Below, in pieces: positions 5,268 to 40,474 of a DNA stretch of 41,068 nt (position 1 is the stretch's first letter; every line of letters starts with the position of its first letter). The stretch covers positions 1-41,068 of the forward strand of contig JAENRP010000372.1 in the NCBI GenBank assembly GCA_024741835.1, given 5' to 3'. The stretch comes from Diplocarpon mali (taxonomy: Eukaryota > Ascomycota > Leotiomycetes > Helotiales > Drepanopezizaceae). The notes under the pieces are model-generated. The model worked only from the letters and a program-made list of their open reading frames with translations. It ran no database searches and was not told where the DNA came from. Made by a program: the position numbers and the translations under genes.

Positions 5268-5290
5268 ACTCCTAGGCCTAGCTTATAAGT
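5268..5290. repeat. Palindromic 23-mer, H copy 1
   Basis: Arms ACTCCTAGGCC / AGCTTATAAGT around T. It lies in the extended gag frame but in the second frame (LLLGLAYK). Confidence 0.8.
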
Positions 5291-6276
5291 AAGAGGATAA
5301 AAAGATATCCTTAAACAACTTAGGACTACTACCTACTTTTTTAATATCGATATTAGAAAATATTAAAAATAATAACAATTTTAAACTTTTCACTAACCCT
5401 TTATCTAAATCCTTTCAAACTCGTCTTAATTACTCTAAGATTGACTTAGATTCTAAACGTTCTTTAAGCCCTTTTATATTTTAAAATACTCCTCTTAATA
5501 ATCAATCTCGCAATATTAAAGCTTCTCCTTTACCTCTTATAGATTCTATTAACTCAAACGGTTAGTATAAAACGATAATAGCCGCATTTAAGGCTATTAC
5601 TAGTCACTTTCCCTTCCTTAATTCCCCTAGCGCTTCTTACTTTATAGGCGCTAATATTACTAATTTCCTTAAGCAATATAAGGAAACTTATTACGATTTT
5701 AGTATTATATAAAAGGATATGATTTCTCAACTTCCTTACTACTATAATTATATAAGCAAGGATATTATCAAGTCCCTCTTCGAATGGAAAACTCATAGTT
5801 TATAAGAACTCCTTATTAAGGCCTTCAAATCTGAATTCTGCGAATTTGATAGATAGCAGATTTGTAATACCCTGGCTTTCTTAAAGGAATTTGTTCTAAT
5901 CACTTGTACTCCTAAGGAACTTAAGAACTACTATCGGACTTTTACTTATATATCAAATACCTTAATCAGTTAGAAAATACTTAGCAAAGTTGAAAGAGGC
6001 TGTCTTTTCTTACTCAAATTACCTACTAGCTTTTAAAATAAGATTATTAAGCATTTTAAGATTAATAAGTAAGACCTTATAACCTTTGCCTTATTTAAGG
6101 AATTCTCGGCCTTTGCTTTAAAATCAGATCTTAATAAGAGAACTATTAATGCTATAGAGTAGGAAAAAGCCCTTACTCCCTCTTATACTAAAGACCTTAA
6201 GAATCTGGTTTAAGAACACTCGAAAGCTTTAGAAATCACAAAGGAGGTAAAGAAGAACCTAATAGTTATACCTTTC

Positions 6277-6299
6277 ACTCGCAGGCCTAACTTAAGAGT
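6277..6299. repeat. Palindromic 23-mer, H copy 2
   Basis: Arms ACTCGCAGGCC / AACTTAAGAGT around T. Encodes TRRPNLRV in the gag frame. Confidence 0.85.
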
Positions 6300-8192
6300 A
6301 AGATCCAACCTTAGAATTAAGGAACTTAAGACCCAATTTATAAAACTCTAAATCTAAAGCTTAGAAACTAAGATTAATAATCTCTTATAAGAAAAATAGC
6401 ATATTCCTTAGTTTGGTAATAAATAAAACTTAGCTATTATAAGCCAACCTAGTAGTTCCTATTACTAGACTCCTACTTCTTATTATTTGGAATAACCAGC
6501 TAATATAAGAATATAATAGCTGGTTAAAGAAGGAGGAATTGATCCTAACTAGCACTCTACTAATATCAATACTATAGGGTATTAAGGAAACGGCAATAGG
6601 AGACAACTAACTTGCAACTTTTGCAATAATAAAGAACTTAACTGCGCTCTATATAAGTACTGCAACGATTGCCCTCTTTTCCTTCGTTTTATTAACACTA
6701 GGGTTATATATATTAATAAGTATAGGATGCTTTATATTAGAGATCCTAGGCTAAAAGCTATCCCTATTAAAAAGCATTAGAATCACTTATAATTATAGAC
6801 TATTTAAATAATAATATATAGTATAAAATAGGATAAGAATTTGGTCAAACGATAGCGTATTATAAATATAAATGCTAAAATTCCAACTTATATATATATA
6901 GGTCTAATTAGCAACCTACCTAAGGGAGTTCTTAAGGACCTAGCTTCTAATCAAATAGCTATAGAAGTTAGAGGTATCTCTATCTTAAGATAGGTTAATA
7001 ATAATATATCTACTAATATTAATACTACTTCTATATCTAGAAACCCTTAGAATACTTAGCGTCCTTTTAAATCTACTACTCCCTTAATACTAATAAAACC
7101 AGCTAAAGTCTAGAAATCAATGTGTGCAACTTAGGAATCTTAATATAAAGTCCAAATGTTAAAAGATACCTAATAATCTAAAATTGCAATAGATAAGGAT
7201 AAAGCTAATATAGTAGACAAATTGATTAGAGATATAATAGATAAAGATAGCTTTAAGCTTAAAGATTAAGAAGTTGAAGTTATTACGCAGACCCTTAACC
7301 CTAAGCGAAAGAGACAGATATTAAAGTAGGAAAAATTCGTTGATAAATATGCTAGTTCAACTGTAATAGAGAAAGCTGTAGAGAATATTATAACCTAGCA
7401 AATTAACCTTATATTTAAAGACCTATTTAGTTTAATTAGACGCTTTAATAAAGTGCTAAGAAAGCATATCCCAATTGCCTTTAAAGATTTAAATAATAAT
7501 AAGGAAATGGAAATTATAATATAAAAGAACTCTAAGAAGCACTTAGCCTTAATTAAATATCTTTAGATTATAGAAGATAAAGGAACCTAAAGGTACTATG
7601 ATATTATAGCAATAGCTTTAATATCTTAGAATATTAATCGAAATTATTCAGCAGTTATAATAAAAAGCCTTATTATTATTTGCTTTATAAAAGAATTAGT
7701 TAAAGCAAAGGCTTTAATTAATTATAGTTTAGAAGTTAATATAATAATTAGAAAAGTGGTAGAAATGGCTCAATTGACAATTATTAGCGATCGACTCCTT
7801 ATTTATTTGACTATCTTTAGATCGAAATACAATTTTAATAGATAGGTGAAAAACGTAAAGGTTAGGGTTAAAGGAATTATTAATTATACTGACTTTCTAA
7901 TAATAGAGAATTCTTTAAACAATATTCTTTTAAAAATGCCCTTTATTTTAGAATCTTAGCTAATATTTAACTATCCTAAAGATAGTCTTATAAAAGCTAG
8001 TCTTTAAAATACAGATCGATCTTTAAAAGGATAAATAGTTATCGCAAGAGATATAGCCGAATTTTAAAATAAGGTTTTAAGAAACGATTAGCTAGCATAA
8101 GGGCTAAGCTTAATACTAATAAAGGAAGGCACTTAGCAAGGAGTTATAGCGAAAGAAAGGTAAGTTTGCCAATTTTGAATAATAGCAATTTA

Positions 8193-8215
8193 ACTCGCAG
8201 TTTTAAACTAGGAGT
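8193..8215. repeat. Palindromic 23-mer, H copy 3
   Basis: Arms ACTCGCAGTTT / AAACTAGGAGT around T. The inner bases are changed on both arms so that pairing is kept. Encodes TRSFKLGV in the pol frame. Confidence 0.75.
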
Positions 8216-8354
8216 CAAATCTGGAATTTTAAAAAATAGTACAATTAGCGTTTTATCAGATTAATAATTAAGAAAAAAGAAAAATAAAGTAGAGAAAAGG
8301 GTTCGTTTTACAAATTTCGATAATTCGCCAATCATTTTAAAAAACCTAAAAACC

Positions 8355-8377
8355 ACTTATAAGCCGGACTCGCAAGT
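8355..8377. repeat. Palindromic 23-mer, H copy 4
   Basis: Arms ACTTATAAGCC / GACTCGCAAGT around G. Encodes TYKPDSQV in the pol frame. Confidence 0.75.
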
Positions 8378-10321
8378 AAAAAATAATAAAATTACTAATA
8401 ACATTTCCATCTACGCACTTTAAATTAATAACTTAGAAAATCTTTTATTTATTATTAAAAAGAAAAATTCAAACTATTTCGCAGGATTTGATAAAAAAGG
8501 AAAGAAGTAAAGAAGTATAGTATTAGCTAATATTTAAACTATATATAAAAGCAAAACTAATAAAGTACGACCGGTAGATTAAGGAATCTCTAACGGCTTA
8601 AAACCTAGAGGATTAGATGATTAGTTTAAATAAGATAAGAAGCTTCGACCTTTAAAGCCAGGTGGCAAATTCGATAAGTTTATTATAAGTAGATTTTCTA
8701 ATAAATCCATCAGATATTAGCTAATAAAAGAACATTTTAATATACTAAAAATTAGAGAAGACTTAATAGAGTAAGAACGCGAACTACTTTATAAAACCTT
8801 AGTAAATTAAAAGGCCGCCTTAGCTTTTGATTAAATAGAACTTAGCCAGATTCGAAAAGAGGTCACGCCTTATATTAAGATTAAGATAATACCCTATAAA
8901 GCCTAGTAAGAAAAAACATTCGGGGTCCCTAAAGCTCTTTAAGAAAAGGTAATCGAAATATTAAAGGATAAATTAAAGTAAGGTATTCTTAAGTTCTATA
9001 ATAGCCCTTATAGGAACAAATGGTTCCTAGTTGCTAAGAAAGAGAAGGGAACTTACAGATTAATAATAGTAATAGTAGAGATGAACCGAGTAACTATTAA
9101 GGATACTAACGTTCCTTTAAATATAGATAAGTTCTTAAATGAATTTATAAGATTAACCTATAGCTCTCTTATTAACTTCTTCTTTAAATATAACTAATTT
9201 ATTCTTAATATTAAATTAAGAGATATAATAGCAATTCAAACCCCTTTTAAGCTACTTCAAATAATAAGATTACCTTAAGGGGCTATAAATTCAATCGCTT
9301 AATTTATCTAAGTAATCTATAAGATACTAGTAGATTATATACCTAATATTGCACTCCCTTATATAAATGATATAAGAGTAAAAGGATTAAGATCATTCTA
9401 TAATTATAAAGAAGTTCTTCCTAGTATATAACAATTTATAATAGAATATATACAGAACCTAGATTAGGTGCTTATACGATTCGAAAGGGTAAGAGCAATA
9501 GTTGGTCCGAAGTTATAATACTATCTTCTATTAATAGAAATTATTAGTTTTATTACTAATTCTAATAGCTGAAGTCCTTAAAGGGCTAAAGTACTTAAAA
9601 TCGATAAATGGAAGAGGTATAATAATATGGTAGAAGCTCGCGCGTTTATTAGTATTATAGTATACTATTGCATTTGGATTAAGGATTTCGCTAAAAAGGC
9701 AGTACCTATTTACGCCTTATTTTGAAAAAGGGCTGAGTTTCAATAGGAAGAACCCTAAATAGAGGCTATAAAACAACTAAAGCAAGCGTTGCTTAAAGCG
9801 CTATATTTAATCAAAATAGACTATAGAGCTGACGCTAGGCCAATTATACTAATAGTTAACGCAAGCTTAATCAAATAGGGTACTGTCCTTTAATAAGCTA
9901 ATAGCTAATAGAAAAGATATCTAGCTCGCTTTAAAAGTGGTCTTTAAAATCTAGCAGAGATAAAGTATAATACTATTAAATAAGAATGCAAAGGAGCTTT
10001 AAAAGTAATGAAAAAGATGAGAAGCGACCTCTATAGCACTTACTTCATCTTTAAAACTAATGCTAAAGTACTAGTAGAATAACTAAATAAAGCTATAAGC
10101 AACCTACTTAAAGCCTTGCTAATAAAATAGATTACTTAAATAAGACTAATAGACTTTAAAGTCAAATATATTTTAAGAACGAAAAACACCGCCGCAGATA
10201 GCCTTTTAAAAAGAACTCGCCCTTACTCTTCTAATTTAATTGAAGAAGACGAAATAGATATTAATAAGTAGGTAGAAAACGAAGTTGGTTATCTATCGAT
10301 ATATTACCTTAAAGGGACTCG

Positions 10322-10344
10322 ACTCCTAGTCCTAGCCCGCGAGT
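10322..10344. repeat. Palindromic 23-mer, H copy 5
   Basis: Arms ACTCCTAGTCC / AGCCCGCGAGT around T. Lies between RNase H and integrase in the second frame (LLVLARES). Confidence 0.85.
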
Positions 10345-11756
10345 CAAATAAGAGAATTTTATCACCTAACTACTTAAGTAACTTTAAAGAAATCGCGAAA
10401 TTTTTAATTACGCTTAAACGACTAAAGACAATTGCTTTTAAGGATTTTTAGAAATTCAAAGCTAAAGCTCTAATTTATCTAATGCAAGGAAAACAATTGT
10501 TTAAAAGAAGCGATAACTTATACCCTATACGACTCTGCTTAAATAATAAAAAACTAAGGGCTAAGGCTATTTAAGATATTTATAAGGAAACTAACTACTA
10601 AGAAGCTAAGTCTACCTACTACCGACTCTTAAGGAAATTCTTTTAAAAGGGTTCTTTTAAAGATTATAAAGCTTTTATAAAAAGTTATATCCCTTATTAA
10701 AAACGAAAACCTAGTTATAAAAAGAATCCTCTATTCCCAACCTAGCTATTAGGCCTTTTCTATAAAGTCAGTCTTAATATTATATAAGTACTAATAACTA
10801 AAAATAGGATTATATATTTTATTTTAATAAAGGAAGACCTATTAGAATAGCTTAAAGGGCGACCTTTGAAATCTGCTAACTTTGAATTTATTATAAAGTT
10901 CCTTTAAGAAGACGTAGTCTATTGCTATAGACTTTTTAGTAGATTAACTATTAATAAGGGCTTTAAAAATAAAGGAGTAATTAAAGCTTTTTTGCAAAAA
11001 TATAGTATTAAATAGGTTTAAATCTTAGCGTACAATTCAAAAGCTAATAGAGTAGTAGAGCGAGGATATCGCAATATTCTTAATAGGCTATCTAAAGTTA
11101 CTTATAAAGGATTTAAGAATTAGATAAAACACTTTTATAAAATACTCTTTACTTATCGAACGATAATTTATAAACTAATTAAAATTATACTATTTTTCCT
11201 TATCTATAGCAGAAAGGTATAGCTTCCTCTTAAATTCTAATAGCCTATTTAAAGATTGTTCGACTATAGTCAAATTTAAAACTATTCCGATTTACTTATA
11301 ATAAGATGCTAACAACTTAAGCTTTAAGATATAGATATAGAGGAAATCATTCTATAAAAGAAACGATATTAGGAAAAAGCTAAGGAAGCATAGGCTACTT
11401 CTAAAGTACTTAAAACGCATCTTATTTAAAAAGATAATCTTATCCTAATCTATAATATTATAAGAAGTATTAATATATTAGCAGATACTAAACTTAACTA
11501 TTAATAGCTTAATCTATTTAAGGTTAAGTTTAAGTAGAAAGAAAAGGAATACTATTCTCTTTAAGAACTTAATAAAGTCGATATTAAAGGAACCTTTGCA
11601 GCTAACCGACTAAAGCGCTTTTATTAATACAACTAGACCTTATTCCCTTTAAAAGACAAATCAGAAATTGATACAACCTCCGAATCTTTTATAAGAACCG
11701 ACGGCGATATAAGTAATTTTAAACCCTTAGATAAAGACTAAGATTTTTCCAACTTA

Positions 11757-11779
11757 ACTTATAAGCCAGTCCTGCGAGT
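11757..11779. repeat. Palindromic 23-mer, H copy 6
   Basis: Arms ACTTATAAGCC / GTCCTGCGAGT around A. Encodes TYKPVLRV near the pol C-terminus. Confidence 0.8.
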
Positions 11780-11900
11780 AAAGAATATCAAAATACCTAA
11801 CTAATCGCAACCTTAAGTTATTATTCTTAAAATATCTAAAGAACGCAAACGGGAATATTAAACGATTTCCTAGCCTATCAATTGTCCTACCTTCCTCTAA

Positions 11901-12195
11901 TCCTTATTTTTACATTTTTAGCAAAGTCGCCTCCTTTATTATTTAGGATATAGATCTTTTAAGATTACCTTAAAATTCTTACCTACTCTAACTTATTTTA
12001 TATTCTTAATATTAGCCTTTAATTATAGCATTCCTATTACTTTCCTTAAATAATAAATAAAAAGTCCAATTTCCTTAATATATATATAGTAAACCTATTG
12101 CAGCTTATATGCCCTTTTAATTCTTATACCCTATTAAACTTTCTTATTTATACTCCCTATCTTTTATAAGTAATATGCCTTTAAAGAACTCATAA
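11901..12195 (+). other. Pyrimidine-rich spacer between pol and ORF A
   Basis: No coding sequence is recognised here. It is rich in T and C on the plus strand, like the spacer before ORF B (15510-16081), and may be the leader or promoter of ORF A. That function is inference only. Confidence 0.4.
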
Positions 12196-13020
12196 ATGGT
12201 TTTATCTATAGCAATAGGGAATAAATAAGCACTAGTTATAAACTTCTCTTAAGATAGTAAAGATATTATATTATTAGAGAACTTCAAATCGACCTACGCA
12301 GCCTTAGGAGATATAGAGTAATAAAAACTCCTTTTAGCTTACGCGAATGCTATTAATAACCTTTCAACCTAAGTGGCCCTTAGAATTCTCTAATTTAACG
12401 ACTTCCTAACCGAAGAATTAAAACTAAAGGGAATCTTTAAAGAGGAATTCTTAGCCGACGCAGATTAATACATAACCTTAGCCGATACTTTTAAAACAGA
12501 TTAAGATAAAAGGGAAGAATCTATTTAACAATTAGATAATTTAGCTACTAATAAGAGAGGACTCCTATTTCATTTGCACTTTTTAATAAAAATTAATTCT
12601 AATAATAGAAGGCGAGTATTATTAAAAATTCTTAAGGAAAATACTCCTATAGCTAAAGCTATATAGATTCTTAATTTCTTTATTATTTAAGAAGGAGTAG
12701 CAAAATTCTAAGGCAATCGAATTTGCGGTTGCAGATTTGTAGGCTTATCTAATACAGTACTTATAGTAGCTAATAGGGCTATAAAAAGGTCAAATTAGGC
12801 TACAGATATTACCCTACCTAATAATACTATTATTAATATGCTAAGGCTCTACGCTTTTGCTTATAGTTTGCTTATTTTAAAAGAGAACTAAACTCCTATG
12901 CTAAGGTTTAAACGAGATTTCTTTAATAATAAAGAAGGGAATTAATTATTTATAATTAAGCCTACCTTAAAATTCGCTTTTTAATCTAAAGATATAATAA
13001 GTACTAAACTATATAATTTA

Positions 13021-13043
13021 ACTCGCGGTCCTAGATTAAGAGT
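13021..13043. repeat. Palindromic 23-mer, H copy 7 (ORF A)
   Basis: Arms ACTCGCGGTCC / AGATTAAGAGT around T. Encodes TRGPRLRV; its position corresponds to copy 10 in ORF B. Confidence 0.85.
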
Positions 13044-14406
13044 TAGAAATAAGAATTTTAAAACTAGACCTAACCTACCTCTTATTAAAATGATTTTAGA
13101 AACCGCTATCGAATAAATTGCTTAAACGCTTAGCGTAGCCTCTTTAGAATTTTCGGAATCTTTAAAGGACTTTCCTTTAGCTAAACGACCTATTTTAGCT
13201 CAACCTTTAAAAAGGATAGATCATTCGATAGCTACCTTAGCTGATTTACAATTTAAAACTAAAAGATTGCGCGCTCGCTTAAACTCCTTCCTTAATAACT
13301 TAAAGGAGCTAATTCTTAACTTCTTTATATCTATATATAACTATTTTAAAAATAATAATATAAGGGAAGACCCTATTCCAATTACTTTAAAAACAATTAA
13401 AAGAGCCGTTAGATAGATTCAATAGCTTATCCTAAACGAGTTTACCCCTACGGATATTATTCAATTCTTTAATAATTATAGAAGTTAAGAACCTAATCTC
13501 TCAAATGCCGAATGAGACTATTTTATCTTATAAGAAAGAGAACGCAAAGAGGAATCTATTAATTAGGATATTTGTAATTATAGTAACGTACTTCAATCGG
13601 TTATTCTTAACCTTAAGCTTAAAGAACGATATAATATTCAAGTATCCTTTATAATAAAGACTTGCTTTTAATAGTATCTTCCTAGCGTAAGAATCAAAGG
13701 GAGAAGACTTTACGACCTTTATATTCGCTCTCTTTCGGTTTATAATAGTCTTAATTATAAAGGATTTGATATTAACGAAACTATTAAATACCTCGAACTT
13801 CTTTACGCAGTAGAAGATGTCGATCTTTTTCTAATTTACCTTAATAATCAGTTCTTTATCTTTTTAAAGATATGCAAATCCAACTTATTAATAATAAAGG
13901 CATCTTTAAGTGCTATAAAATTCAAGGCTGATCCTAAAGCCTTAAAAGCGTTAGAGCCGATTGAATAGAATAACTCCTTCTTATCGATATTATTAAGCAA
14001 TAAATAGTAAGAGGAAATAGAAGAAGAAAGGTCAATTGTAATGCCTAAGCCCTTCGGATGCCGCTTCTTAACCGATAATTTTACTACTAATAATAGTACT
14101 TTTATAAGTATATTCCTCTCTATTATAAGATAAGAAGTAGAGATGTATCTTTATCACTTCTGCCTTATAGATAGCGCAACTTCTATACCTTTTTATTTTC
14201 TCTATAATATAATATTCAGTCTTACTTAATAAGTCCTTCGAATGTACTATAGACTCTACCTCTTAACTATAATAGTAAGAAATAAAGGAACCTATTAGCT
14301 TATAGCCTACCTTGAACCTCCTTAATTGATTGGCCTTAGTCTTTACAATTAAGTCGTTTTAATAAAGAGAGATATAAGTGCTACTAATAAAGAAAGTCCG
14401 ATTTTT

Positions 14407-14429
14407 ACTTGCGGTCCTAGCCTGTAAGT
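14407..14429. repeat. Palindromic 23-mer, H copy 8 (ORF A)
   Basis: Arms ACTTGCGGTCC / AGCCTGTAAGT around T. Frame TCGPSL, stop, V; corresponds to copy 12 in ORF B. Confidence 0.85.
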
Positions 14430-15291
14430 CAATTTTATTAGAAAGCAAGTCTTAAATTATTAGATCCTACTAATCGGATAAGGGCTAGCTTCTAGAAGCC
14501 TTAATAGGTAGGTTGGCTCTTAATCGATTATAAAACTCACTCTATCTATAAAGAAGACAAGTCGATAGACTTCTTAAGCACTCAGTTCAAAATCTCAACT
14601 AGCTCGAATAACCGCAAAATTGAAGTAAAAGGAGATCTTACGACCTATTATTAATAATAGCAATCCAATTATAGTAATAACGAAATAGGGATACCTTCTT
14701 AAAATGCTTTCGGACAATTCTTATAAGACTAGTAGTTTTATAGCCTTTTGCAATAACTATATAGCCATCCTTAATAAGAATACCTTAGAAAATGAGACTT
14801 AAATCTCCGATTTTATCTTTTTAGTCTTTATTCTAAAGCAACCTCTAATACTTTAATAGATTAACGCAAGTAGAACCACTATACCTTTTAAGGCAGCTTT
14901 TCATTTTAAAAACTGCAGTAGCCTCTTTAAAGCTATTATTAGTCGACGCTCTTAAATAGATCTATCAGTTATAATCGAAGTATAGGAGTTGTTTCTTCTT
15001 AATAAAGACGAATTGAAAATCCACCTTATAAAATATAATTAGAAGCTCTTTAACGCCCTTATTAAGGCCTAAACAAATGTTATAAATACTAAGTCGCTTC
15101 TTTATAGACTCAAGTCTTAAGGATAGCGCGATAAAGTAAATGCTATCCGAGAGCCTGATGCACTAATTAATAAAGGCATTATTATAAGAAAATTCGGAAA
15201 AGAAACGAACTAAGACGCTAGTATAGTATTAGATACTAATTTAAGAACTAATCCCCTGTTTTTACCCTTAAGCTTAAAAACACTAAGACTG

Positions 15292-15314
15292 ACTCGCGAG
15301 CCTAGCCCGCGAGT
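15292..15314. repeat. Palindromic 23-mer, H copy 9 (ORF A)
   Basis: Arms ACTCGCGAGCC / AGCCCGCGAGT around T. Encodes TREPSPRV. A looser relative (ACTCGGCTAGC ... GCCTACGAGA) follows at about 15323-15347. Confidence 0.88.
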
Positions 15315-15509
15315 AAGGTTAGACTCGGCTAGCTTAAGCCTACGAGATAGTTCGAATGAACCTTAGTTACCAAATCTAGGGATACTAATAGAAGATCCTT
15401 TAAGAGAGGTCCCTAAAGCTAAGAAATCGCTAAGAAATAAGAACTAATATAAGAAAAGAAGACTCTAAAGTAATAATAAAACTAATAATTAAGTCGACTC
15501 GATCTAAAG

Positions 15510-16081
15510 AATTATAATCTACCCCCCTTTAAAAACCATTTAAAGAGATTACAAATTAAATATTGAATTTTTTTAAGATTATCTACTTTCTATATACCTA
15601 TACCTCTTTATTCTTAACCTATTATTCTATTCTATATATATTCTTTATTTACTTTACTCTTTATATAATTTATTCTTTAATTATTCCCTTTATATGCAAA
15701 TTTTTAATACTCACCTTTGAAATGTCGTCCTTACCTTTAATAATAGTCATTTACCAATTGTAAGTCCTTATATGCGTTATATCCTACTTTTGTTCCTACT
15801 TCTAGCCTCTTTATACCTACTTTTTCTTTATACACTAGTACGATTCCATCTTTATAAATAAACCTCTTCCTGCACTACGATTATACTTTTTTTTACCTTT
15901 TCTATAACCCTACCAAACCCTAGCACTAGCAATACCACTACTACTATCTTCTATTATCAATTCTTTCCTAGTACAAGCTCACTGTCTTATTAATCTGCCT
16001 TAAATAAGCTTCTACGAGTTCTATTATCCTATCCCTAATAAATAATTCATTATAGCACTACTGAGCTTAAGCAAAAAGGCC
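15510..16081 (+). other. Pyrimidine-rich spacer between ORF A and ORF B
   Basis: The spacer is about 570 bases, strongly T/C-rich on the plus strand from 15560 to about 15960. A short open frame (15563-15763) is low-complexity Phe/Tyr/Leu and looks incidental. It is comparable in composition to the spacer before ORF A. Confidence 0.4.
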
Positions 16082-16939
16082 ATACTTAAGAAAAACATAT
16101 CAATTGTTACCTTAAACAGCCAATCAATAAATACCGCTAGTAATAAACTAATACTAAAGGGTAGCTTTTCATAAGATGGAAAAGCTCTAAAATCATTAAA
16201 AGATATTATAACTACTTATAAAACGTTAAGTGAAATGGAGCAATAAGTATTCCTGAATTCGTCTATTAAAGTACTAAACTATAGAATTTCTACTATTAAA
16301 GAAGGATTTTTAAAGTTTAACGATTTTCTTAAGAAAGAGCTTAAGACTAAGGGAATCGATTAGGAGAAGTTTCTATAAGAATATTAAGAGTATGCCAATT
16401 CAGTTGATTTGTTTTAAAAGAATCGAGATAAGAAAAATAAGTATATGAAAAGACTAATGCAGTTTATAAACAGAATATATAGAACGCTCTTTCAAAGCCA
16501 CTTTATAAATAATATTATAGCTAATAATGCTCTACAAGGACTCGGCAAGATTTTTAAAACATACTAACCTATAGCAAAAGCGATATAGGTATTAAATCAT
16601 TTCACTATATAAGAAGGAATGAAAAAGCTATAAGGAAACAATATCAGAAGTAGGAAATTTATAAGGTTCTTAAGCACTATTATATACTCTACCATTCAGA
16701 CTATAAAAGACGATCCCTTATAGTATAATAATTTTACACTCCCTAATTAGACTATTTTAAATACCCTTAGCCTATAATAGTTATAATATAGTCTACTTAT
16801 AGTAAGGGAGAAGATGGTCTATCTAATTAAGTATATTATAAACTACTTCGATAATAAAACAGAAAGATAGGAGTTTATTATACCCGCCGCTTAGAAAATG
16901 CTGCCACTCTTGACAGATTCAATTAATAAGCTAAATTTG

Positions 16940-16962
16940 ACTCGTAGGCCCGGCCTACGAGT
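16940..16962. repeat. Palindromic 23-mer, H copy 10 (ORF B), perfect
   Basis: Arms ACTCGTAGGCC / GGCCTACGAGT around C, a perfect 11-bp inverted repeat. Encodes TRRPGLRV. Confidence 0.95.
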
Positions 16963-17116
16963 AGAAGCGCTATATAATAAAGATGCCCTTAAGTATAAGT
17001 TACCTATAATACCTTATATATAAATAATAGACTACCCTAACTGCCAATTATCTAAGTCAGACGACTTTGATTCCCTATCTCTTAAAATCCCCCGAATACC
17101 TATAGTAATAAAATCG

Positions 17117-17139
17117 ACTCGCGAGCCCGGCCTATAGGT
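17117..17139. repeat. Palindromic 23-mer, H copy 11 (ORF B)
   Basis: Arms ACTCGCGAGCC / GGCCTATAGGT around C. Encodes TREPGLQV (TAG read as Gln). I see no counterpart in ORF A. Confidence 0.88.
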
Positions 17140-18346
17140 CGATACACATAATATCATTAATTTAGATAGTGATTTAATAGATAAAGAGAATAACCTTATC
17201 ACTAACGTATTAGAAATTTTTAATAAAACTAAAAAGGATACATCTGATATTATATAGACTTTGCCTAAAGACCTGTAAAGGTTTATTCTAAAATTTTACA
17301 AGTCCATAATGAAGCGTTTAAAAAAAGAAGACTAAGAAGAAGTTTTATTAGCGTAGGAAGGGACGGCAAGAGCCGTCAAACAGATCATAAAGCTTTAAGA
17401 AGATAGATTTTCCGCCGATAATATTATACAGTTTTTCATTAAGCATAAAAAGCTAAAGGGTAATTACTATATTCTTAAAGAAAAATCAGATAATAATATA
17501 ATAACCATCTTTATAAAGTGCTATAAAGTCCCCTTTAATATTAAGATAATACTATAGTATAGCAATAGATTCAAGATTATAGTAATATTAGAAATAAAGA
17601 TACAACTAGGCAGATTTATAATAGGAATTTCTAAAGATACTAATAATGAAAAATTTTATACTCTTTATAAAAGACAATATGCGCAGTACTATAGGTTAGC
17701 ATTAATAGGCCTTAATAATAAAGATATATTATCTAATATCTATAAATTTTATATAGCTTTAAACCCGAAATTGTTCTTACTATATCTTAGAAATCATACT
17801 ATTATAGTTACCGGCAATAGAATAGCGAACTAAGTCAAGAAGGATATATTGCTAGGCTTCTCTAAGTTCAGAATAGCACTTAAAGCCTTTAAATTATTCT
17901 ATAATATCGCTTAGACCCTGGCCTAATATAATGCTATACTAACTAATAATAGCTTAATATCGCTCTATAGTAAAGGCTTTTTAAATATGCCTAAGTTGCT
18001 TAGCTATGCCTTTTTAGGCATTATGCGTATATATAGTTATAGTAATTATAAAAAGAATTCATTTTTAATATTAGTATAAAAGGAGCTAGAAATATATTAA
18101 TACCATTTCTAGACCTTAGATAAGAAGCTAAGCCTCCCCTCTGCCTTCCTTTATAACATGACTTATAGCTTGATATAGTAGACCTTAAGGATATACTATA
18201 GTCTGTATCTTAGTGCTCTATTAACTTATTATAATTCTTTATATAAGCTAGTGGCGTATCCTAAGCCTATACAATTTATAGGCATTAACTACTATTTGCG
18301 AATTGTTTTTACTAAGATTAATACCAACTTGAGATTCGTAAGGTTG

Positions 18347-18369
18347 ACTCCTAGGCCTAGCTCGCAGGT
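18347..18369. repeat. Palindromic 23-mer, H copy 12 (ORF B)
   Basis: Arms ACTCCTAGGCC / AGCTCGCAGGT around T. Encodes TPRPSSQV. Confidence 0.85.
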
Positions 18370-19168
18370 TAATTCTCCTAATAGTAGAACTATTAATTAT
18401 TATATGATTCCTACTATTAAATAATCGACTAGGGAATTTACTATATAGGAAAAGTCTTATAAGTCATTTACACTTATACCCTATCGCTTTAAAAACTCTT
18501 AGTAGATCTCGCTAAACCTAGTATAGAGCGCAGTTTAATAAAAAGAATTAAATACTAAGGATAGAATAATTCTAAAGGAGTATATCTCTAATAAGACTAT
18601 TCTATTCTTTATATTTATAAGATAAGGCACTTTTATTAACTTGGATTCTGATAGAGAGCCTAGGAAGGGTGGTTTTCTTACTATTAGTAACAACTATATA
18701 GAAGTTGTTAGCAATGATACGCTTGAGAATAGAGCTGATTTAAAAGATTTCCTTATCGACTCTATTAATATGAAAAAGCCTTAATTGTTAAGATAGGGCG
18801 TAGTCTATAAATCTTCCGCAAGATTCTAAGCAACAATTGGAATAACAAAAGGTAGTCTATTATTAGAAGCCCTTATAGGTAAAAGATTATAGAACGATCT
18901 ATTAATAATAATAACTATAAAGGATTTATTCGCAAAAGACGTATCTTAGCTAATAGCATATCTGAAGAAGTATAAATAAGAACTTTTTAAAGATTTTACT
19001 AGTACTTAAAAGCTAGTTTAATAACTAGAGCTATAGTTATATAGCGATAAGTCTTGGATAAAGACCAAAGATATAAAAGATAATATTAAAGCTGATAATA
19101 TAATTAATAAGACGATTCTATTTAAGAAGTATAGCATTAAGAAACCTTATGCAAAGACACTTAATATA

Positions 19169-19191
19169 ACTCCTAGGCTTAGCCCGCAACT
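19169..19191. repeat. Palindromic 23-mer, H copy 13 (ORF B)
   Basis: Arms ACTCCTAGGCT / AGCCCGCAACT around T. Encodes TPRLSPQL. Confidence 0.82.
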
Positions 19192-19583
19192 TGATTTGGC
19201 AAAGGGCAAGGCTAAGGAAGTAGTATTTATAGAATCTCCTACCTCCTCTTCCTCTATTACCGACAATTCCCTTAAGGATAATAACGATAATAATAACGAT
19301 AATGCTACTATATAAGTCTCTCTCCCCGTCGGTAGAAGCCGCTAAAGCATACTAGCATCTGCTTAAACTACCGAAGCTCCTATTACACCGAGACCTATCT
19401 TATCAAACACTAATAGCAATATTATAAAAAGAAGTGGTCGTTTAGCGAAAAGAGTATTATCTAATAATAGTTCTCCCTATCTTCTAAAGAGAACTAAGGA
19501 AAACTAATACCTAGGTTAGTTCTATTTTAATTATTTTTACAATTCTATAGCTTATTTGTTTATTTTATTAGTTTCGTTTTCTA

Positions 19584-19606
19584 ACTCCTAGGCCCGGCCT
19601 ATAAGT
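19584..19606. repeat. Palindromic 23-mer, H copy 14
   Basis: Arms ACTCCTAGGCC / GGCCTATAAGT around C. Lies after the probable ORF B stop and 12 bases before the assembly gap. Confidence 0.88.
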
Positions 19607-19618
19607 GAAAAGTGTAAA

Positions 19619-19675
19619 NNNNNNNNNNNNNNNNNNNNNNNNNNNNNNNNNNNNNNNNNNNNNNNNNNNNNNNNN
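19619..19675. other. Assembly gap (57 N)
   Basis: A run of N begins 12 bases after a palindromic 23-mer (19584-19606). The true length is unknown, so the 3' part of element H may be longer than shown. Confidence 1.
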
Positions 19676-19839: not shown

Positions 19840-20084
19840 TATAAAGACCTAAGATAGATAGGTCTTATAATATATACTATATAATTGGCGTAGGATAGTA
19901 GGAGGATAAAAGGGCCATCTTCTATATATAGAGACAGCGCGTATCGCTATAGTACTAAATATACCCCATACTTGGGACTTATTCCTAATATCTTATCTAA
20001 GAGAGCCCGCTTATGGTGCTTCCTCCTTTTGTTTTTAGGTCTTCCCTTAGGCCTATTCTTATGTTATCTCCCCTCTGTTTTATA
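19840..20084 (+). repeat. 3' LTR of element H
   Basis: The 245-bp LTR starts TATAAAGACC and ends CTGTTTTATA, followed by the ATAT target duplication. It is a full-length match to 4347-4591. Confidence 0.92.
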
Positions 20085-20136
20085 ATATAGCAAGAAAAGA
20101 TAAAAAAGAAGGTAGTAATAGCAAGTATAGGAATAT
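20085..20136 (+). repeat. Repeat unit right of element H (partner of 4300-4346)
   Basis: It starts ATATAGCAAGAAAAG and ends TATAGGAATAT, the same purine-rich unit as on the left side of H, with one extra A in the A-run. Together they suggest a pre-existing tandem repeat in the 3' region of G. Confidence 0.75.
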
Positions 20137-29039: not shown

Positions 29040-29055
29040 CCTATTCCCTTTTATA
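29040..29055. repeat. LINE target-site duplication, right copy
   Basis: CCTATTCCCTTTTATA is identical to 22825-22840. Confidence 0.93.
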
Positions 29056-32099: not shown

Positions 32100-32398
32100 T
32101 ATAGGTTCTATACTAGTAATCGATATTTATATAAATATAATTGAGTACTTATTATTAAAAAGAATCTATTATGATATCTATCTATCTCTATATAATTGAG
32201 ATAGTACCTTTATACTTATAAATGTCCTTCCTCTTATAGTCCCTCCTAGCCGTATATAGATATCCTTTTAAGGTCCTCTGGCTGAATAGCCGTCCGAAAT
32301 ATATATAAAACCCCTTATATCGCATATGGTATAGCTATGTGGGATGACCCTAGGAACGAGAACAGCTTGCCTCCTGCATAGGAATCTGCGTACCAACA
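32100..32398 (-). repeat. 5' LTR of element G
   Basis: The 299-bp LTR on the minus strand starts TGTTGGTACGCAG and ends AACCTATA. It is followed on the plus strand by the GTTAG duplication. It is less mutated than its partner at 2388-2686. Confidence 0.92.
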
Positions 32399-32518
32399 GT
32401 TAGTTTGTAATAAACTCCTTATTTTGCCTATTTGTCTAGCTTTGCCCTAATCTCTAATGCATTATTAGACCTAATAGCTATTAGCTTTAACTAGGTCCAG
32501 CGTTCCTTTATCACTTTC
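32399..32518 (-). pseudogene. Continuation of Copia copy C1 (integrase)
   Basis: This matches C2 at 35483-35603. On the minus strand it reads as the integrase segment around IKxxRSDNALEIK. It stops where LTR1 of copy C2 begins. Confidence 0.85.
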
Positions 32519-32713
32519 TATTGAGCTTAAGTGAGTCGGCGCAGTAGGTAAAGGAGGCTTCTAGAGGTCGATAGTCGATATATTAGTAAGAGTTAGGGAA
32601 GGAAGGTTACCCCTTTCTTCCTTATAGCTATATATATATCAATATCTTATTAACTAAGCAGTAGGGTTATATGATAATATATTGGAGTAATACCTATATT
32701 ACCTATCTTAATA
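32519..32713 (-). repeat. C-family LTR1 (3' LTR of C2)
   Basis: The 195-bp LTR has minus-strand ends TATTAAG and CTCAATA (TGTTAAG...CTYAACA before RIP). The same length is found at 35765-35959 and 40053-40247. A purine-rich AAGTAGAGG lies just upstream on the minus strand, as expected for a polypurine tract before a 3' LTR. Confidence 0.9.
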
Positions 32714-32851
32714 CCTCTACTTAGACCTTACTCCGATTGACTTGCAGTTAGGAAAATAACAATTATCCTTTTGCGCTAATCCAACTCCTAAGTATCTCTT
32801 TAAATTAAAAATAATTAATTAATAGTAACCTCTATTGAAATCACCAATCCT

Positions 32852-32874
32852 ACTTATAGGGCAGGACTAGGAGT
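32852..32874. repeat. Palindromic 23-mer, C2 copy a
   Basis: Arms ACTTATAGGGC / GGACTAGGAGT around A. In the 3' untranslated region of C2. Confidence 0.8.
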
Positions 32875-32915
32875 TAAATTTCTAAAAGTGTTCCTTTATA
32901 AGACTATATAACTTA

Positions 32916-32938
32916 ACTCGCAGGGCAGGCCTAGGAGT
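32916..32938. repeat. Palindromic 23-mer, C2 copy b
   Basis: Arms ACTCGCAGGGC / GGCCTAGGAGT around A, 41 bases after copy a. Confidence 0.88.
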
Positions 32939-32970
32939 CGTCCTTAAGTATACTAAGCCCTTACTATCTT

Positions 32971-35764: not shown

Positions 35765-35959
35765 TATTAAGCTTAAGTGAGTCGGCGCAGTAGGTAAAGG
35801 AGGCTTCTAGAGGTCGATAGTCGATATATTAATAAGAGTTAGGGAAGGAAGGTTACCCCTTTCTTCCTTATAGCTATATATGTATTAATATCCTATTAAC
35901 TAAGCAGTAGGGTTATATGATAATATATTAGAGTGATAACTATATTACCTATCTTAATA
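35765..35959 (-). repeat. C-family LTR2 (3' LTR of C3)
   Basis: The 195-bp LTR on the plus strand starts TATTAAGCTTAAGTGAG and ends CTTAATA. It interrupts the integrase of C2. Confidence 0.9.
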
Positions 35960-36097
35960 CCTTTACTTAGACCTTACTCCGATTGACTTACAATTAGGAA
36001 AATAACAACTATCCTTTTACGCTAATCCAACTCCTAAGTATCTCTTTAAATTAAAAATAATTAATTAATAGCAACCTCTATTAAAATTACCAATCCT

Positions 36098-36120
36098 ACT
36101 TATAAGGCAGGACTAGGAGT
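36098..36120. repeat. Palindromic 23-mer, C3 copy a
   Basis: Arms ACTTATAAGGC / GGACTAGGAGT around A. Confidence 0.8.
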
Positions 36121-36161
36121 TAAATTTTTAAAAGTATTCCTTTATAAGACTATATAACTTA

Positions 36162-36184
36162 ACTCGCAGGGTAGGCCTAGGAGT
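36162..36184. repeat. Palindromic 23-mer, C3 copy b
   Basis: Arms ACTCGCAGGGT / GGCCTAGGAGT around A. Confidence 0.86.
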
Positions 36185-36216
36185 CGTCCTTAAGTATACT
36201 AAGCCCTTACTATCTT

Positions 36217-38289
36217 CTATAACTCTAGTATATCTTTAAATGCTTTAAACTTTACAACTATCTTTAGTAGCTTTATAAATCTATCTACTACTATTCGATT
36301 AGTTAAGATATAAGTAATTAATAACTTATTCTTTATAATAAGGTTGCAGATAAAGTAATAAGTAATATTAATATATTTCAATCGCTTATATAAGTGTGGA
36401 TTCTTTATAAGTATAATCGCCCTTATATTATCTGCTTAAAGATTAATATAGTTCCTATCTTATTTAATATACTTAGCAAAACCTATATCTTTTAAAACTT
36501 AAGCGATTTATAATCCTTACTTACAATTTAATAATATTAATATATATTCGGCCTTAGTGCTTGCAGTAGCTATTAATTTCTACTTCCTACTTCCTTATAA
36601 TATAGGTCTACTATATAATACTACTACGCTTTTAAATATACTTTTCCGACCTTTTATATTTACCTAATCGGAATTAGTATATGCCTTAAGCTTTACGCTT
36701 ATATATTTTATTAATCTATATCTTACCTTTTATATAATTATCGATCAAAGGTACCTTTTAAGTCGCTTAACTATATTCTTATATTAAATTATTAGATCTT
36801 TTAAGTTCTAACTAAGTTGCTTAATAATAAAGGCGATATCTGGTCTTATATATACTATAGTATATATAATCGCTCTAATATCCTATTAGTACTTCTTTAG
36901 ATCTCCTCTCTACTTATTTTTATTAGTAGGCTCTAATTTATTATACTTTCCTTTAATTAGAATACACTTTAGCTTAAAGTTAAAAGCATAAGTAGAGAGT
37001 CCTATTTAGTCTAGGATCTTCTTAATATACTACTCTTAATCTAACCAAAGTTCTCAAGTGGAGTAGTTCTTTATAACGCAGATGCTAAGGATCTTATAAA
37101 TTCCCTTTAAATCCTTAGTATTAAAACGTTTTTAAATTATTATAAAGAACTAATTTAATTAAATAGTTGTCTTTACAGCTATAGCAATATTATTAATATA
37201 TAGTAGCAACTTGATTCTACACTTAATATAAGTAAATAGATAAGGGTCAGCTAGGCTTTAAACGAATCCCATTTTTACTAAAGTAGAGCTATATAAGAAG
37301 TTCTAATTATAGGCTAATTGTTTAAGCCTATAGATACTGCAAAGTATATAAAGAGAGTGGCTAGCGCATATAAGAATACCATTAGGTTAAGAGAAAAAAA
37401 TCCGTTCCTTTATAATCGCTTTAGTAAATGCATTTTTTATATTATACTATCTACATTTAAGGTCCTTAATAGCTACTATTGCTATAAATATGCAAAAGGT
37501 ATTTATATAAACTATTAGCGCGAACGTATTAAAGTAGTCTTCTTTATACTATTAAGAGAAGCCCTTAGCTATAAGCCTTACCTTATAATATTCTAAGGTC
37601 CTATCTACATATATCTTAATTGTAAAGACCCACTTTATTAATACTAAGTTTATATCCTTTAGCATCGGTTCCTCTATTTATATACCATTTGCAATAAGAG
37701 AGCTTATCTCTTCTTAAATTGCCTTATTCTATATTACTCTATTCTCTAGGTTATTAATAGCTTTATTATATATCTTTAAAAAAGAGATTTTCATTATCCC
37801 TTTAGTAGCTAGGAACGCATTATCTTTATCAAAGCTCTATTAAAGTTTAAGCTTATAAATCCTATATGCTATTATAGCCTAAATATGCTTAGACTTGCAT
37901 TCGTTTAAGGTGTCTTCCGATTCTAGGTCTCTATTCCTCTTTAAAGGCGTAGGTTTAGCTATAGGTTCCGTAGGCTTATTATCTAAGGAACTGCTTTTTA
38001 ATAATAGAGGCTTATTATTACTTATACCTATTTTAAGAATATCTTTAACTATAGGTGCTTTAACTAAAGGAATAATGATCTCGAAGTTATTCTATACTTT
38101 AGGCAGTTTACAAACGATAGGAATAGTCTATTCGGCCTTTAGGCAATTAGCAAGTCGTCGATTAGTAGGTGCACTTAATATGCTTAAGCTAAAAGAAAGG
38201 GGTTATTAGTTCAGCTTAATAGTATTACTATCAAGTGGTATACCTTGCGAATCTTTAAGTATGCAAAGCTTTAAGGACAGCTCCCCTTA
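36217..38289 (-). pseudogene. Copia copy C3: RT and RNase H, truncated in linker
   Basis: A third aligned copy of the C-family pol on the minus strand, with stop TAG at 36217-36219, RNase H, RT, then part of the linker. Similarity to C1 and C2 ends at about 38288 (AGCTCCCCTT), where Gypsy remnant Y begins without an LTR between. Confidence 0.88.
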
Positions 38290-38638
38290 ATATAAGAGTA
38301 TATTAGCTAGTGTATTTATTATACCTATTCGGTATATAATAAGGAAGTTGAAGTTAGCGAAGAACTCTGCTTAGCAAGCCTACTAGGCTATTAAGTCCTT
38401 AGTTATTATAAAGTACTTAAGGGCCTTATAATCTATATATACGCATACTATTTTCTAAGCCTTAAGTAGCTTTGCCTTATACTAATAGAATGATTTAAAA
38501 ATCGCTAAGAGCTCTTTATTATAAATAAGGTAATTTAGCTTAGCGTTATTTATAATCTTTAAGAAGTACTCGATTAGATAATAGTCATTATCTTCTTAGA
38601 GTTAAGAGAATATGCTAGCAACTATACTATTAGAGGTA

Positions 38639-38723
38639 TATTATATATAATACCGCTTGGTTAAAATGTGAATCTATACCTTAGGGCGCGTACTAGTATA
38701 TTTAGCCTATTTTCTATATAATA
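38639..38723. repeat. TRIM-like direct repeat, left
   Basis: 85 bp containing ATACCGCTTGG and GGGCGCGTACTAG, matching 39052-39136 with a few C/T and G/A differences. Confidence 0.85.
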
Positions 38724-38729
38724 TACCCC

Positions 38730-38766
38730 TTAGGTCGCTGGAAGAATAGTTTTTCCAGCGGCCTAA
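38730..38766. other. Strong hairpin just inside the TRIM-like repeat
   Basis: Arms TTAGGTCGCTGGAA (38730-38743) and TTCCAGCGGCCTAA (38753-38766) pair over 14 bp with one G-T pair and a 9-base loop. It is far richer in G+C than its surroundings. Confidence 0.8.
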
Positions 38767-39051
38767 GTACTAGCCTAGTCTGTAGTAGTATAGATATAGC
38801 GCATAGACTGCTAAGCTAGTAGGAAATAGGTAGTCGGAAGGCCGGAATGCATTTTTCTTCGGCTATATATTAAAGGTCGTTTTATTTAAATCTATCGAAA
38901 CTTCTATTAATATAGTTGAAACTGAGTATAATTATTGCCGAATTCTTTAAAAAGTAGTTTATTAGTAGAACTTTAAAGTAAGAAACGTTAGTTAAACCTT
39001 GCGTAAAAGGAATGCGAAAAGATTTATCGCTACGCTTATAGGGCTTATAAC

Positions 39052-39136
39052 TATTATATATAATACCGCTTGGCTAAAATGTGAATCCATACCTTAAGGC
39101 GCGTACTAGTATATTTAGCCTATTTTCTATATAATA
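39052..39136. repeat. TRIM-like direct repeat, right
   Basis: The 85-bp partner of 38639-38723. Confidence 0.85.
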
Positions 39137-40052
39137 AGGCATTAGTCTTAAGCCTTATCTACTTCTAAGGGTAATAGTAGTATAAAATCAAGGTTACTTA
39201 AAAGCTTAAGCGCAAAGTTTCCCAAGCTTTTTTATAAGTATTATTAAAATTAATAGGAACGTTCCTTATAAGAGCTATTAAAGGTCGGCAGATATAACTA
39301 TAGCTTTAAATAAACCTTTAATAGAAGTTACAGAACCTTAAGAAGCTCTATATACTATGTATATTCTTAGCGTATTTTTACTCTTAAATAACTTAGACCT
39401 TATTAAGGTCTACTTTAATTTTATAAACTCTAATAATAAACCCTAGGAACCTAGTCTTAGTAACCTTGAACTCGCTTTTCTTAATATCTACTTAAAGGCT
39501 ATAGTATTAAAGAATTCCTAAGATCTTCTTAATATAAATCTTATAGTTAAGGGAGTTTTTTAAGTAGATTAGAATATTATTTAAGTAGGTAGAGTAGAAA
39601 TCGTTAAGGTGCTTAAGGAGAATATTATTAATAAACCTTTAAAAGGTAGTAGGCCTATTTGTCAGCCTAAATAGTAAAACCTTATATTTGTAAGTCCTAT
39701 AACGCATGCGAAAGGTAGTTAGGTCCTTAGCGTTAATTAATATGCGGATATAGTAAAAGGCTTATTATATATTGATTTTTATAAAAATATAAGCTTTCGA
39801 TATATATGCTATTATCTTATTAATAAGTGGAATCGGGTAAGGGTCTTTCTTCATTAAAGCGTTTAGTTTCCGATAATCGATATATAAGTATAAGGAGCTA
39901 TTAGCTTTTTTAATAAAAAGGATTAGGGCTACTTAAAGGAAACTCGAAGCTTTGATAAATCCTTTATATAAGTTCTTAAGAATATAGCTCTTGACCTTTG
40001 AGAGCTATTTATTAGTAAGGCGGTAGAAGGGTTCGATTATTAAGTTATTCTT

Positions 40053-40247
40053 TATTAAGCTTAAGTGAGTCGGCGCAGTAGGTAAAGGAGGCTTCTAGAG
40101 GTCGATGGTCGATATATTAGTAAGAGTTAGGGAAGGAAGGTTACCCCTTTCTTCCCTATAGCTATATACGTATTAATATCCTACTGATTAAGCAGTAGGG
40201 TTATATAATAATATATTAGAGTGATAGCTATATCACTTATCTTAATA
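40053..40247 (-). repeat. C-family LTR3 (3' LTR of C4)
   Basis: The 195-bp LTR starts TATTAAGCTTAAGTGAG on the plus strand and ends CTTAATA. It interrupts Gypsy remnant Y. Confidence 0.9.
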
Positions 40248-40386
40248 CCCTTACTTAGACCTTACTCTGATTGACCTACAGTTGGGAAAATAATAACTAT
40301 CCTTTTGCACTAATCCAACTCCTAGGTATCTCTTTAAATTAAAAACAATTAATTAATAATAACCTCTATTAAAATTACCAAACTCT

Positions 40387-40409
40387 ACTCGCAAGGTAGG
40401 ACTAGGAGT
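40387..40409. repeat. Palindromic 23-mer, C4 copy a
   Basis: Arms ACTCGCAAGGT / GGACTAGGAGT around A. Confidence 0.82.
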
Positions 40410-40451
40410 TAATTTTCCTAAAAGCGTTCCTTTATAAGACTATATGACCTA

Positions 40452-40474
40452 ACTCGCAGGGCGGGCCTAGGAGT
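40452..40474. repeat. Palindromic 23-mer, C4 copy b
   Basis: Arms ACTCGCAGGGC / GGCCTAGGAGT around G. Confidence 0.88.

What the first reader, a model, noticed from the sequence alone, without database searches (positions are those of the whole stretch)
5268..40474. Dispersed near-palindromic 23-bp element shared by a Gypsy and a Copia family
Twenty copies, all exactly 23 bp, follow the plan ACTCGYRGGCC, one base, GGCCYRCGAGT (starts: 5268, 6277, 8193, 8355, 10322, 11757, 13021, 14407, 15292, 16940, 17117, 18347, 19169, 19584, 32852, 32916, 36098, 36162, 40387, 40452). Copy 16940 is a perfect inverted repeat; the others differ mostly by C/T and G/A changes. They stand out as G+C-rich islands in AT-rich sequence, and occur in two unrelated retrotransposon classes but not in G, the LINE or Y. 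This suggests either an independent tiny palindromic mobile or gene-conversion unit, comparable in concept to Rickettsia palindromic elements or fungal mitochondrial hairpin elements, or a shared functional site. I know of no named nuclear fungal element of this form.
Basis: partly seen in the sequence, partly recalled or inferred. Interest (0 to 1): 0.86.

Follow-up and report, generated by a model that had tools for sequence, protein, structure and literature searches.

The report
Shared palindromic DNA site in retrotransposons
Several unrelated retrotransposons in a leaf-blotch fungus carry the same roughly 23-27-letter palindromic DNA sign at fixed places along their length, kept letter by letter even inside genes, which suggests that some still unknown protein reads it.

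Summary
The 20 window sites are real and reach far beyond this window: 2888 sites at <=3 mismatches in the 49.4-Mb genome, 0 for the reversed control. The genome is Diplocarpon coronariae or near kin. The element does not behave as a small mobile unit: in three families the sites sit at the same places in the closest copies scored, with no palindrome-sized gap, and flanks show no target duplication. It occurs in at least two Ty3/Gypsy lineages, a Copia family and unclassified repeats. Inside reading frames it is read in two frames, and its third codon positions lack the transversions seen in flanks (0/24 versus 62/240 columns), so the DNA itself is held constant, not only a peptide. The arms vary independently, against a hairpin; the motif extends to a pyrimidine at -2 and a purine at +2 (48/48 half-sites). 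Best reading: a duplex DNA site recognised as two half-sites by an unidentified dimeric protein, conserved in LTR retrotransposons and multiplied locally by tandem duplication, comparable in logic to VANC target motifs in Arabidopsis. The binder and any benefit are inferred. How so many dispersed sites arose is unexplained.

The parts
5268..5290 (.). palindromic site, Gypsy element A, upstream (gag) part, read in frame nnA-CTC
   Evidence: homologous site in L074, L080, L089, L090
6277..6299 (.). palindromic site, element A, upstream (gag) part, frame ACT-CGN likely (local stop counts ambiguous)
8193..8215 (.). palindromic site (most decayed, 7 mismatches), element A, upstream of RNase H (and of RT by my reading of the letters)
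   Evidence: 40 rows without palindrome-sized indel
8355..8377 (.). palindromic site, element A, upstream of RNase H
10322..10344 (.). palindromic site, element A, downstream of the RNase H domain, frame nnA-CTC
11757..11779 (.). palindromic site, element A, downstream of pol; frame unclear
13021..13043 (.). palindromic site, extra ORF 1, aligned with 16940 in extra ORF 2
14407..14429 (.). palindromic site, extra ORF 1, aligned with 18347 in extra ORF 2
15292..15314 (.). palindromic site, end of extra ORF 1
16940..16962 (.). perfect palindrome, extra ORF 2 (TRGPGPRV in intact D. coronariae proteins)
17117..17139 (.). palindromic site, extra ORF 2; no partner in ORF 1
18347..18369 (.). palindromic site, extra ORF 2 (TPGPGSRV in three of four intact proteins; this stretch is missing in the fourth)
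19169..19191 (.). palindromic site, C-terminal part of extra ORF 2 (TPGPGPQL/RL in intact proteins)
19584..19606 (.). palindromic site between extra ORF 2 and the downstream repeat; next to a run of N
32852..32874 (.). palindromic site, Copia family repeat copy 1
32916..32938 (.). palindromic site, Copia family repeat copy 1
36098..36120 (.). palindromic site, Copia family repeat copy 2
36162..36184 (.). palindromic site, Copia family repeat copy 2
40387..40409 (.). palindromic site, Copia family repeat copy 3
40452..40474 (.). palindromic site, Copia family repeat copy 3
4349..4594 (+). 246-bp terminal direct repeat (LTR) of element A, 5' copy
19842..20087 (+). 246-bp terminal direct repeat (LTR) of element A, 3' copy
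8000..11700 (+). RIP-degraded Gypsy pol of element A
   Evidence: RNase H PF17917/PF17919; homologues with RT, RNase H and integrase
12154..15600 (+). extra ORF 1 of element A (degraded; ends approximate)
   Evidence: aligned with ORF 2, 342 of 1194 columns identical
16058..19500 (+). extra ORF 2 of element A (degraded; ends approximate); relatives found only in D. coronariae among the candidates scored; no Pfam family for copy L030
33200..35800 (-). RIP-degraded Copia polyprotein (RVT_2)

Best explanation
The element is a duplex DNA recognition site made of two inverted half-sites (about YYN-ACTC[G/C]YRRGCC, with a purine/A-rich stretch outside) meeting at one free base, at least 27 bp in all. 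It is part of the inherited sequence of several LTR-retrotransposon families of Diplocarpon. Shown: fixed positions in the copies measured, a profile that extends symmetrically outside the search pattern, DNA-level constraint inside reading frames, independence of the two arms, recurrence in unrelated families, varying numbers of site-bearing tandem units. Inferred: a symmetric (dimeric) sequence-specific protein, from the host or from one element family, binds these sites along the element, and elements keep and multiply them because binding helps them, most likely by promoting transcription or opposing silencing, as VANC does for VANDAL elements in Arabidopsis. How 14 such sites first came into one element is not shown: tandem duplication explains close pairs, not the dispersed ones. 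The G+C-rich look arises because a site with G or C at 18 of 22 non-central positions (unmutated form) stands in DNA that RIP has made AT-rich.
For: 2888 sites versus 0 for the reversed-not-complemented control; one match each, in 69% G+C DNA, in IMG/VR and in the prokaryote genome collection with slightly different patterns. Same positions in 30 of 30 fetched element-A copies for 16940 and 17117 down to 76% identity, in 30 of 30 fetched Copia copies, and between ORF 1 and ORF 2 (342/1194 identical columns) for 13021/16940 and 14407/18347. Columns with >=2 transversion copies: 1 of 88 non-central palindrome columns versus 116 of 720 flank columns; at third codon positions 0 of 24 versus 62 of 240, Fisher p 0.001. 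Same string read as T-R-G-P-G-P-R-V and as L-x-[GS]-x-A-x-E. -2 is Y in 48/48 half-sites, which the search pattern did not select. Own-arm identity 186 of 264 versus 183.6 for random pairing. Unit number 1-4 in the second Gypsy family.
Against: No binding protein is known or was found; extra ORF 2 has no Pfam match and an unusable predicted structure (mean pLDDT 29.7). The constraint test rests on four sites of one family in copies that share ancestry, so the Fisher value is optimistic; phase 1 columns alone do not differ from flanks (p 0.18), and taken alone site 15292 did not stand out in the first version of the test, which still held non-homologous rows. In the Copia family 8 of 30 copies differ by transversion at two positions of the second site. 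Whether the Copia sites are coding is undecided (6.6-13.7 stops per 100 codons in the six frames). Dispersed gain of long sites has no explanation here.
Confidence: 0.48

Rival explanations
1. An ancient mobile palindrome (Rickettsia-palindromic-element-like, or spread by gene conversion) that once entered many positions and is now immobile and merely inherited.
For: More than 20 separate positions in unrelated families; 23 plus one base keeps reading frame; in proteins the sites fall outside the recognised domains, for instance in the stretch between RNase H and integrase (my reading). Homologous Gypsy proteins of other fungi mostly lack the peptide there. 17117 is in ORF 2 only.
Against: No empty site among 39 measurable copies of the second Gypsy family (40 of 181 candidates scored) and no palindrome-sized indel in the 40 scored rows each. 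No target duplication; own arms no more alike than random pairs. A neutral relic should not show synonymous constraint. The RNase H-integrase stretch varies in length between fungi, so one search shows no precise empty site. Only the closest copies were scored, and seven distant rows show 15-18 extra bases that I did not resolve.
Confidence: 0.2
2. A peptide motif (T-[RP]-x-P-x-x-R-V), for instance a protease cleavage site or linker of the retrotransposon polyproteins, whose DNA only happens to be palindromic.
For: Most coding sites use frame ACT-CGN; 13021/16940 and 14407/18347 keep T..P..RV-like residues at homologous positions; intact D. coronariae proteins show TRGPGPRV, TPGPGSRV, TPGPGPQL.
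Against: Third codon positions are as constrained as the others; two sites are read in another frame; family D, whose copies are less RIPped than element A, has open stretches of only 39-65 aa through the site, so probably non-coding; the flanking Y/R rule holds on both sides.
Confidence: 0.1
3. An RNA or single-strand hairpin signal of the element transcript.
For: Inverted repeat with G+C-rich arms.
Against: Arms do not covary: at position 5 the two arms differ in purine/pyrimidine class in 15 of 24 contexts; an asymmetric arm pair is kept at site 18347.
Confidence: 0.07
4. Preferred integration target of LTR elements.
For: In L020 an element-A LTR sits inside the 18347 palindrome. Plant LTR elements show a weak preference for palindromes (PMC6911290, passages).
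Against: One clear case; element A itself in the window, the solo LTR at 894-1138 and the L074 LTR are not flanked by half-palindromes by my reading; apart from L020, the isolated half-sites look like chance matches or misregistered neighbours (58 listed).
Confidence: 0.05
5. Accidental ancestral sequence of these families with no function at all.
For: First-look candidate numbers of a few families, times sites per copy, would be enough to account for the genome-wide count.
Against: Does not explain recurrence at many unrelated positions nor the constraint.
Confidence: 0.1

Closest known systems
VANC target motifs of VANDAL transposons, Arabidopsis (PMC5735166; passages read)
   Same: Sequence motif repeated along an element; motif-bearing tandem repeats gained and lost between copies.
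   Different: VANC21 motif is 9 bases (YAGTATTAY), mainly non-coding and enriched in one family; here at least 23-27 bp, palindromic, largely in coding DNA, shared by Gypsy and Copia. No VANC-like protein was found here.
Rickettsia palindromic elements (recalled; only search listings seen)
   Same: Palindromic, present inside reading frames, frame-preserving.
   Different: RPEs are longer and mobile (recalled); here no sign of mobility.
REP/BIME elements of bacteria (search listings only)
   Same: 20-40-bp palindromes in high copy, also arranged in arrays.
   Different: Extragenic and bacterial; here inside LTR retrotransposons of a fungus.
Mitochondrial GC clusters / double-hairpin elements of fungi (partly recalled; one listing)
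   Same: G+C-rich palindromic islands in AT-rich DNA.
   Different: Nuclear, fixed positions, no covariation of arms.

Membership tests
Palindromic mobile element (RPE-like) | empty orthologous or paralogous sites | tested here: not met
   0 of 39 measurable copies empty; no palindrome-sized indel or in the full-length rows. Only the best-scoring paralogous copies of one genome were tested.
Palindromic mobile element (RPE-like) | target-site duplication | tested here: not met
   direct flanking repeats of >=3 bp in 0 of 24 contexts (2 bp in 2, 1 bp in 7)
Palindromic mobile element (RPE-like) | copies in host genes or unique DNA | tested here: inconclusive
VANC-type target motif | motif density along an element and varying number of motif-bearing tandem repeats | tested here: met
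   14 sites in element A; 1-4 units of 45 bp in the second Gypsy
VANC-type target motif | cognate binding, anti-silencing protein | not testable with these tools
   no candidate; ORF 2 without Pfam family or usable fold
VANC-type target motif | specific to one element family, non-coding | tested here: not met
   several families, largely coding
RNA hairpin element | covariation of paired positions | tested here: not met
   own-arm match equals random pairing

The most novel reading that the evidence does not exclude
A single dimeric DNA-binding protein of Diplocarpon reads a long palindromic 'badge' that unrelated Gypsy and Copia retrotransposons have acquired convergently, or passed between one another, as a shared anti-silencing or transcription platform spread through their coding sequence.
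Probability: 0.3. Interest if true: 0.85.

Novelty: new variant of a known kind. Interest (0 to 1): 0.62.

Why it matters
If a protein reads these sites, it links LTR retrotransposons of different superfamilies through one cis-acting site, and shows DNA-level selection acting on transposons inside their own genes. It would give a handle on how retrotransposons stay active in a fungus with strong RIP. It also warns annotators that peptides such as TRGPGPRV in these proteins may be footprints of a DNA site.

Tried and rejected
Mobile unit: not supported for lack of empty sites, target duplications and arm similarity. The first automatic empty-site screen flagged 45 of 225 queries; its output was cut. 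The cases I saw looked like misplaced gaps, different numbers of tandem units in the second Gypsy family, or the tandem array next to family D; I did not resolve each.

Integration target: one case (L020), otherwise no visible excess of half-sites. Hairpin: no covariation. Peptide motif: contradicted and by frames. Fold of ORF 2: unusable, so no fold search was made. Searches of IMG/VR and prokaryote genomes gave one match each, in 69% G+C DNA, taken as chance. One search (plasmids) found nothing.

On checking, I had first called the Copia sites non-coding. One search does not settle it (lowest frame 6.6 stops per 100 codons, close to the 12-14 per 200 of the degraded pol). I withdrew that claim and moved 0.02 from the main reading to the peptide rival.

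Papers: searches. I saw no description of this site in those listings; of the two D. coronariae genome papers I saw passages only (PMC12158172, PMC11527701; both 0 occurrences of 'palindrom' in the main text). That is no proof that it is unpublished.

Rows dropped before counts: L005, L035, L036, L046 as duplicates of window sequence; L038:1220 and L002:2930 as spurious, copies with N in the flank (so 19584 and L041:115 have no representative), and L074:1004 and L065:1407 as homologues of L080:1028; L011, L017, L020 at 15292 and L020 at 18347 as not homologous there. In one search, 10 of 30 Copia copies lay in the other orientation and were not aligned; one search repeats this with all 30. The 24 contexts are not all independent: A and its relatives share ancestry, and L077, L087, L065 and the Copia sites come in pairs.
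Full report
What is there. All 20 sites are present as listed. A scan at <=6 mismatches recovers 19 of the 20 and nothing else in the window; 8193 has 7 mismatches. At <=3 mismatches there are 7 sites, while 100 shuffles gave none. In the whole genome (49.37 Mb, 676 contigs) there are 2888 sites at <=3 mismatches and 0 for the pattern read backwards; a wider pattern without the RIP-type changes gives 188 at <=1 mismatch and 0 for the control. In 304 kb of fetched, transposon-biased loci, 230 sites at <=6 mismatches stand against 1 reversed control.

Which organism. A Gypsy polyprotein found with the sites (L004) is 75% identical to D. coronariae proteins over the searched part. Extra ORF 2 of the window's Gypsy element, searched with copy L030, gave four proteins, all D. 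coronariae, among the 7991 candidates scored. The differences look like RIP (my reading of the letters). Low CpA/TpG and high TpA run through the window, and no ORF of 150 aa survives. So the window is D. coronariae or very near kin. Published assemblies are 50-54 Mb (PMC11527701, PMC12158172, passages).

The carriers. (A) An element of 15.7 kb between 246-bp direct repeats (4349-4594, 19842-20087) with degraded Gypsy pol and two extra paralogous ORFs; 14 sites. (B) A Copia family (RVT_2), two sites per repeat copy, three in L011; coding status of these sites undecided. (C) A second Gypsy, with 1-4 sites in 45-bp units between RNase H and integrase by my reading. (D) A repeat next to A-rich tandem units, probably non-coding. 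(E) Relatives of A: L089, L090 and L080 (86-87% alike) and L065 carry a site in the place of 5268, with sequence 68-69% alike to A or to L065. (F) A repeat with two sites 54 bp apart, L077/L088. L087 resembles C weakly (one match, 71% over 116 columns) and has two sites 45 bp apart. First-look candidates (not confirmed copies) were 238, 266 and 249 for three parts of A, 1175 for B, 181 for C, 190 for F and 99 for E. Times sites per copy, these exceed the genome count, so no further carriers are needed to explain it; whether any copy lies in host genes was not settled.

Fixed positions. The sites at 16940 and 17117 are present in 30 of 30 fetched rows (the window included), down to 76% identity, and both Copia sites in 30 of 30. 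For 8193/8355 and for 13021, 40 rows each show at most one base of difference between matched span and query; the 40 rows differ by -3 to +9 bases, in the full-length rows by a few. For C, a query with the site removed gave 40 scored copies of 181 candidates: 17 carry exactly 23 extra bases, 16 carry 68, 3 carry 113, 1 carries 158, 2 carry other lengths (77, 131), and 1 shows one side only; none is empty (arithmetic checked). The tool scores the best candidates, so distant copies were not tested; seven distant rows of family E differ by 15-18 bases, unresolved.

DNA or protein. Around four sites in 27-30 copies, flank columns show transversions most often at third codon positions (62 of 240, against 30 and 24 of 240), as coding sequence should. 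Within the sites it is 0 of 24 at third positions (Fisher p 0.001), 0 of 32 at first (p 0.02) and 1 of 32 at second positions (p 0.18); of the four central bases 1 varies. Sites 5268 and 10322 are read in another frame than most (stop counts; L074, L089 and L069; in L089 a second frame is open almost as far). Hence the string is held at DNA level, though in the Copia family 8 of 30 copies differ by transversion at two positions of the second site. Intact D. coronariae proteins show what less mutated sites encode: TRGPGPRV, SRGPGPRV, TPGPGSRV, TPGPGPQL/RL.

Anatomy. In 24 contexts (48 half-sites) -2 is always a pyrimidine (p 7e-15), -3 mostly so (41), -1 is free, -5 and -6 are purine-biased (34 and 39 of 48). 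These flanks were not part of the search pattern. The centre is free. Within the 23-mer the profile is mirror-symmetric, though there the pattern itself was symmetric. Own arms match no better than randomly paired arms (186 versus 183.6 of 264), and at position 5 they differ in class in 15 of 24. So neither hairpin pairing nor recent copying of a perfect palindrome is indicated; two half-sites in duplex DNA is the simplest reading. No direct flanking repeat of 3 bp or more occurs in 24 contexts.

Age and gain. ORF 1 and ORF 2 of element A align with 342 of 1194 columns identical; 13021/16940 and 14407/18347 fall on the same columns, 17117 has no partner, and 15292 and 19169 are 20 residues out of register. 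So two sites look older than the duplication, and others came or went. Among the 134 proteins listed by the first two protein searches, a loose pattern hit six: four D. coronariae, P0035 and P0020; P0017 shows TREPGARV in the alignment and with a wider pattern. For P0017 and P0035 (unnamed sources) the peptide fits well, but their DNA was not seen. The two Drepanopeziza brunnea homologues P0029 and P0072 have none.

Mechanism. Shown: a conserved two-half-site DNA word in several LTR-retrotransposon families. Inferred: a symmetric binding protein, and a benefit to the elements, most likely transcriptional or anti-silencing. The closest parallel is VANC in Arabidopsis, where motif arrays grow by tandem repetition and guide an anti-silencing protein (PMC5735166, passages). 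Against filing it there: no binder known, several superfamilies, coding location, palindrome. Extra ORF 2 could be a partner but has no Pfam family and no usable model. What stays unexplained is how so many dispersed long sites arose; a past copying process cannot be excluded.

Noticed in passing
window 12154-15600 and 16058-19500: The Gypsy element carries two paralogous extra ORFs of about 1000 aa; relatives of ORF 2 were found only in D. coronariae among the candidates scored, and copy L030 of it has no Pfam match.
   Followed up: partly
L020:400-520: An element-A LTR is inserted inside the 18347 palindrome of another element-A copy.
   Followed up: partly
L004, L067, L083 (one), L075, L079, L060 (two), L082, L084 (four): A 45-bp tandem unit carrying one palindrome varies from one to four copies between RNase H and integrase of a second Gypsy family.
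   Followed up: yes
window 894-1138: Inverted solo LTR of element A inside a copy of the Copia repeat, with a possible 4-bp GTAT target duplication.
   Followed up: no
window just after 19606; L041, L065: Short runs of N next to palindromes or A/T runs, either assembly gaps or withheld stretches.
   Followed up: no
P0035 residue 241, P0017 residue 833: Gypsy proteins from unnamed sources carry TREPGPRV and TREPGARV, which suggests that the site exists outside Diplocarpon.
   Followed up: no
L042:3582-3700: Right of one palindrome, two further stretches resemble strongly decayed copies of it.
   Followed up: no
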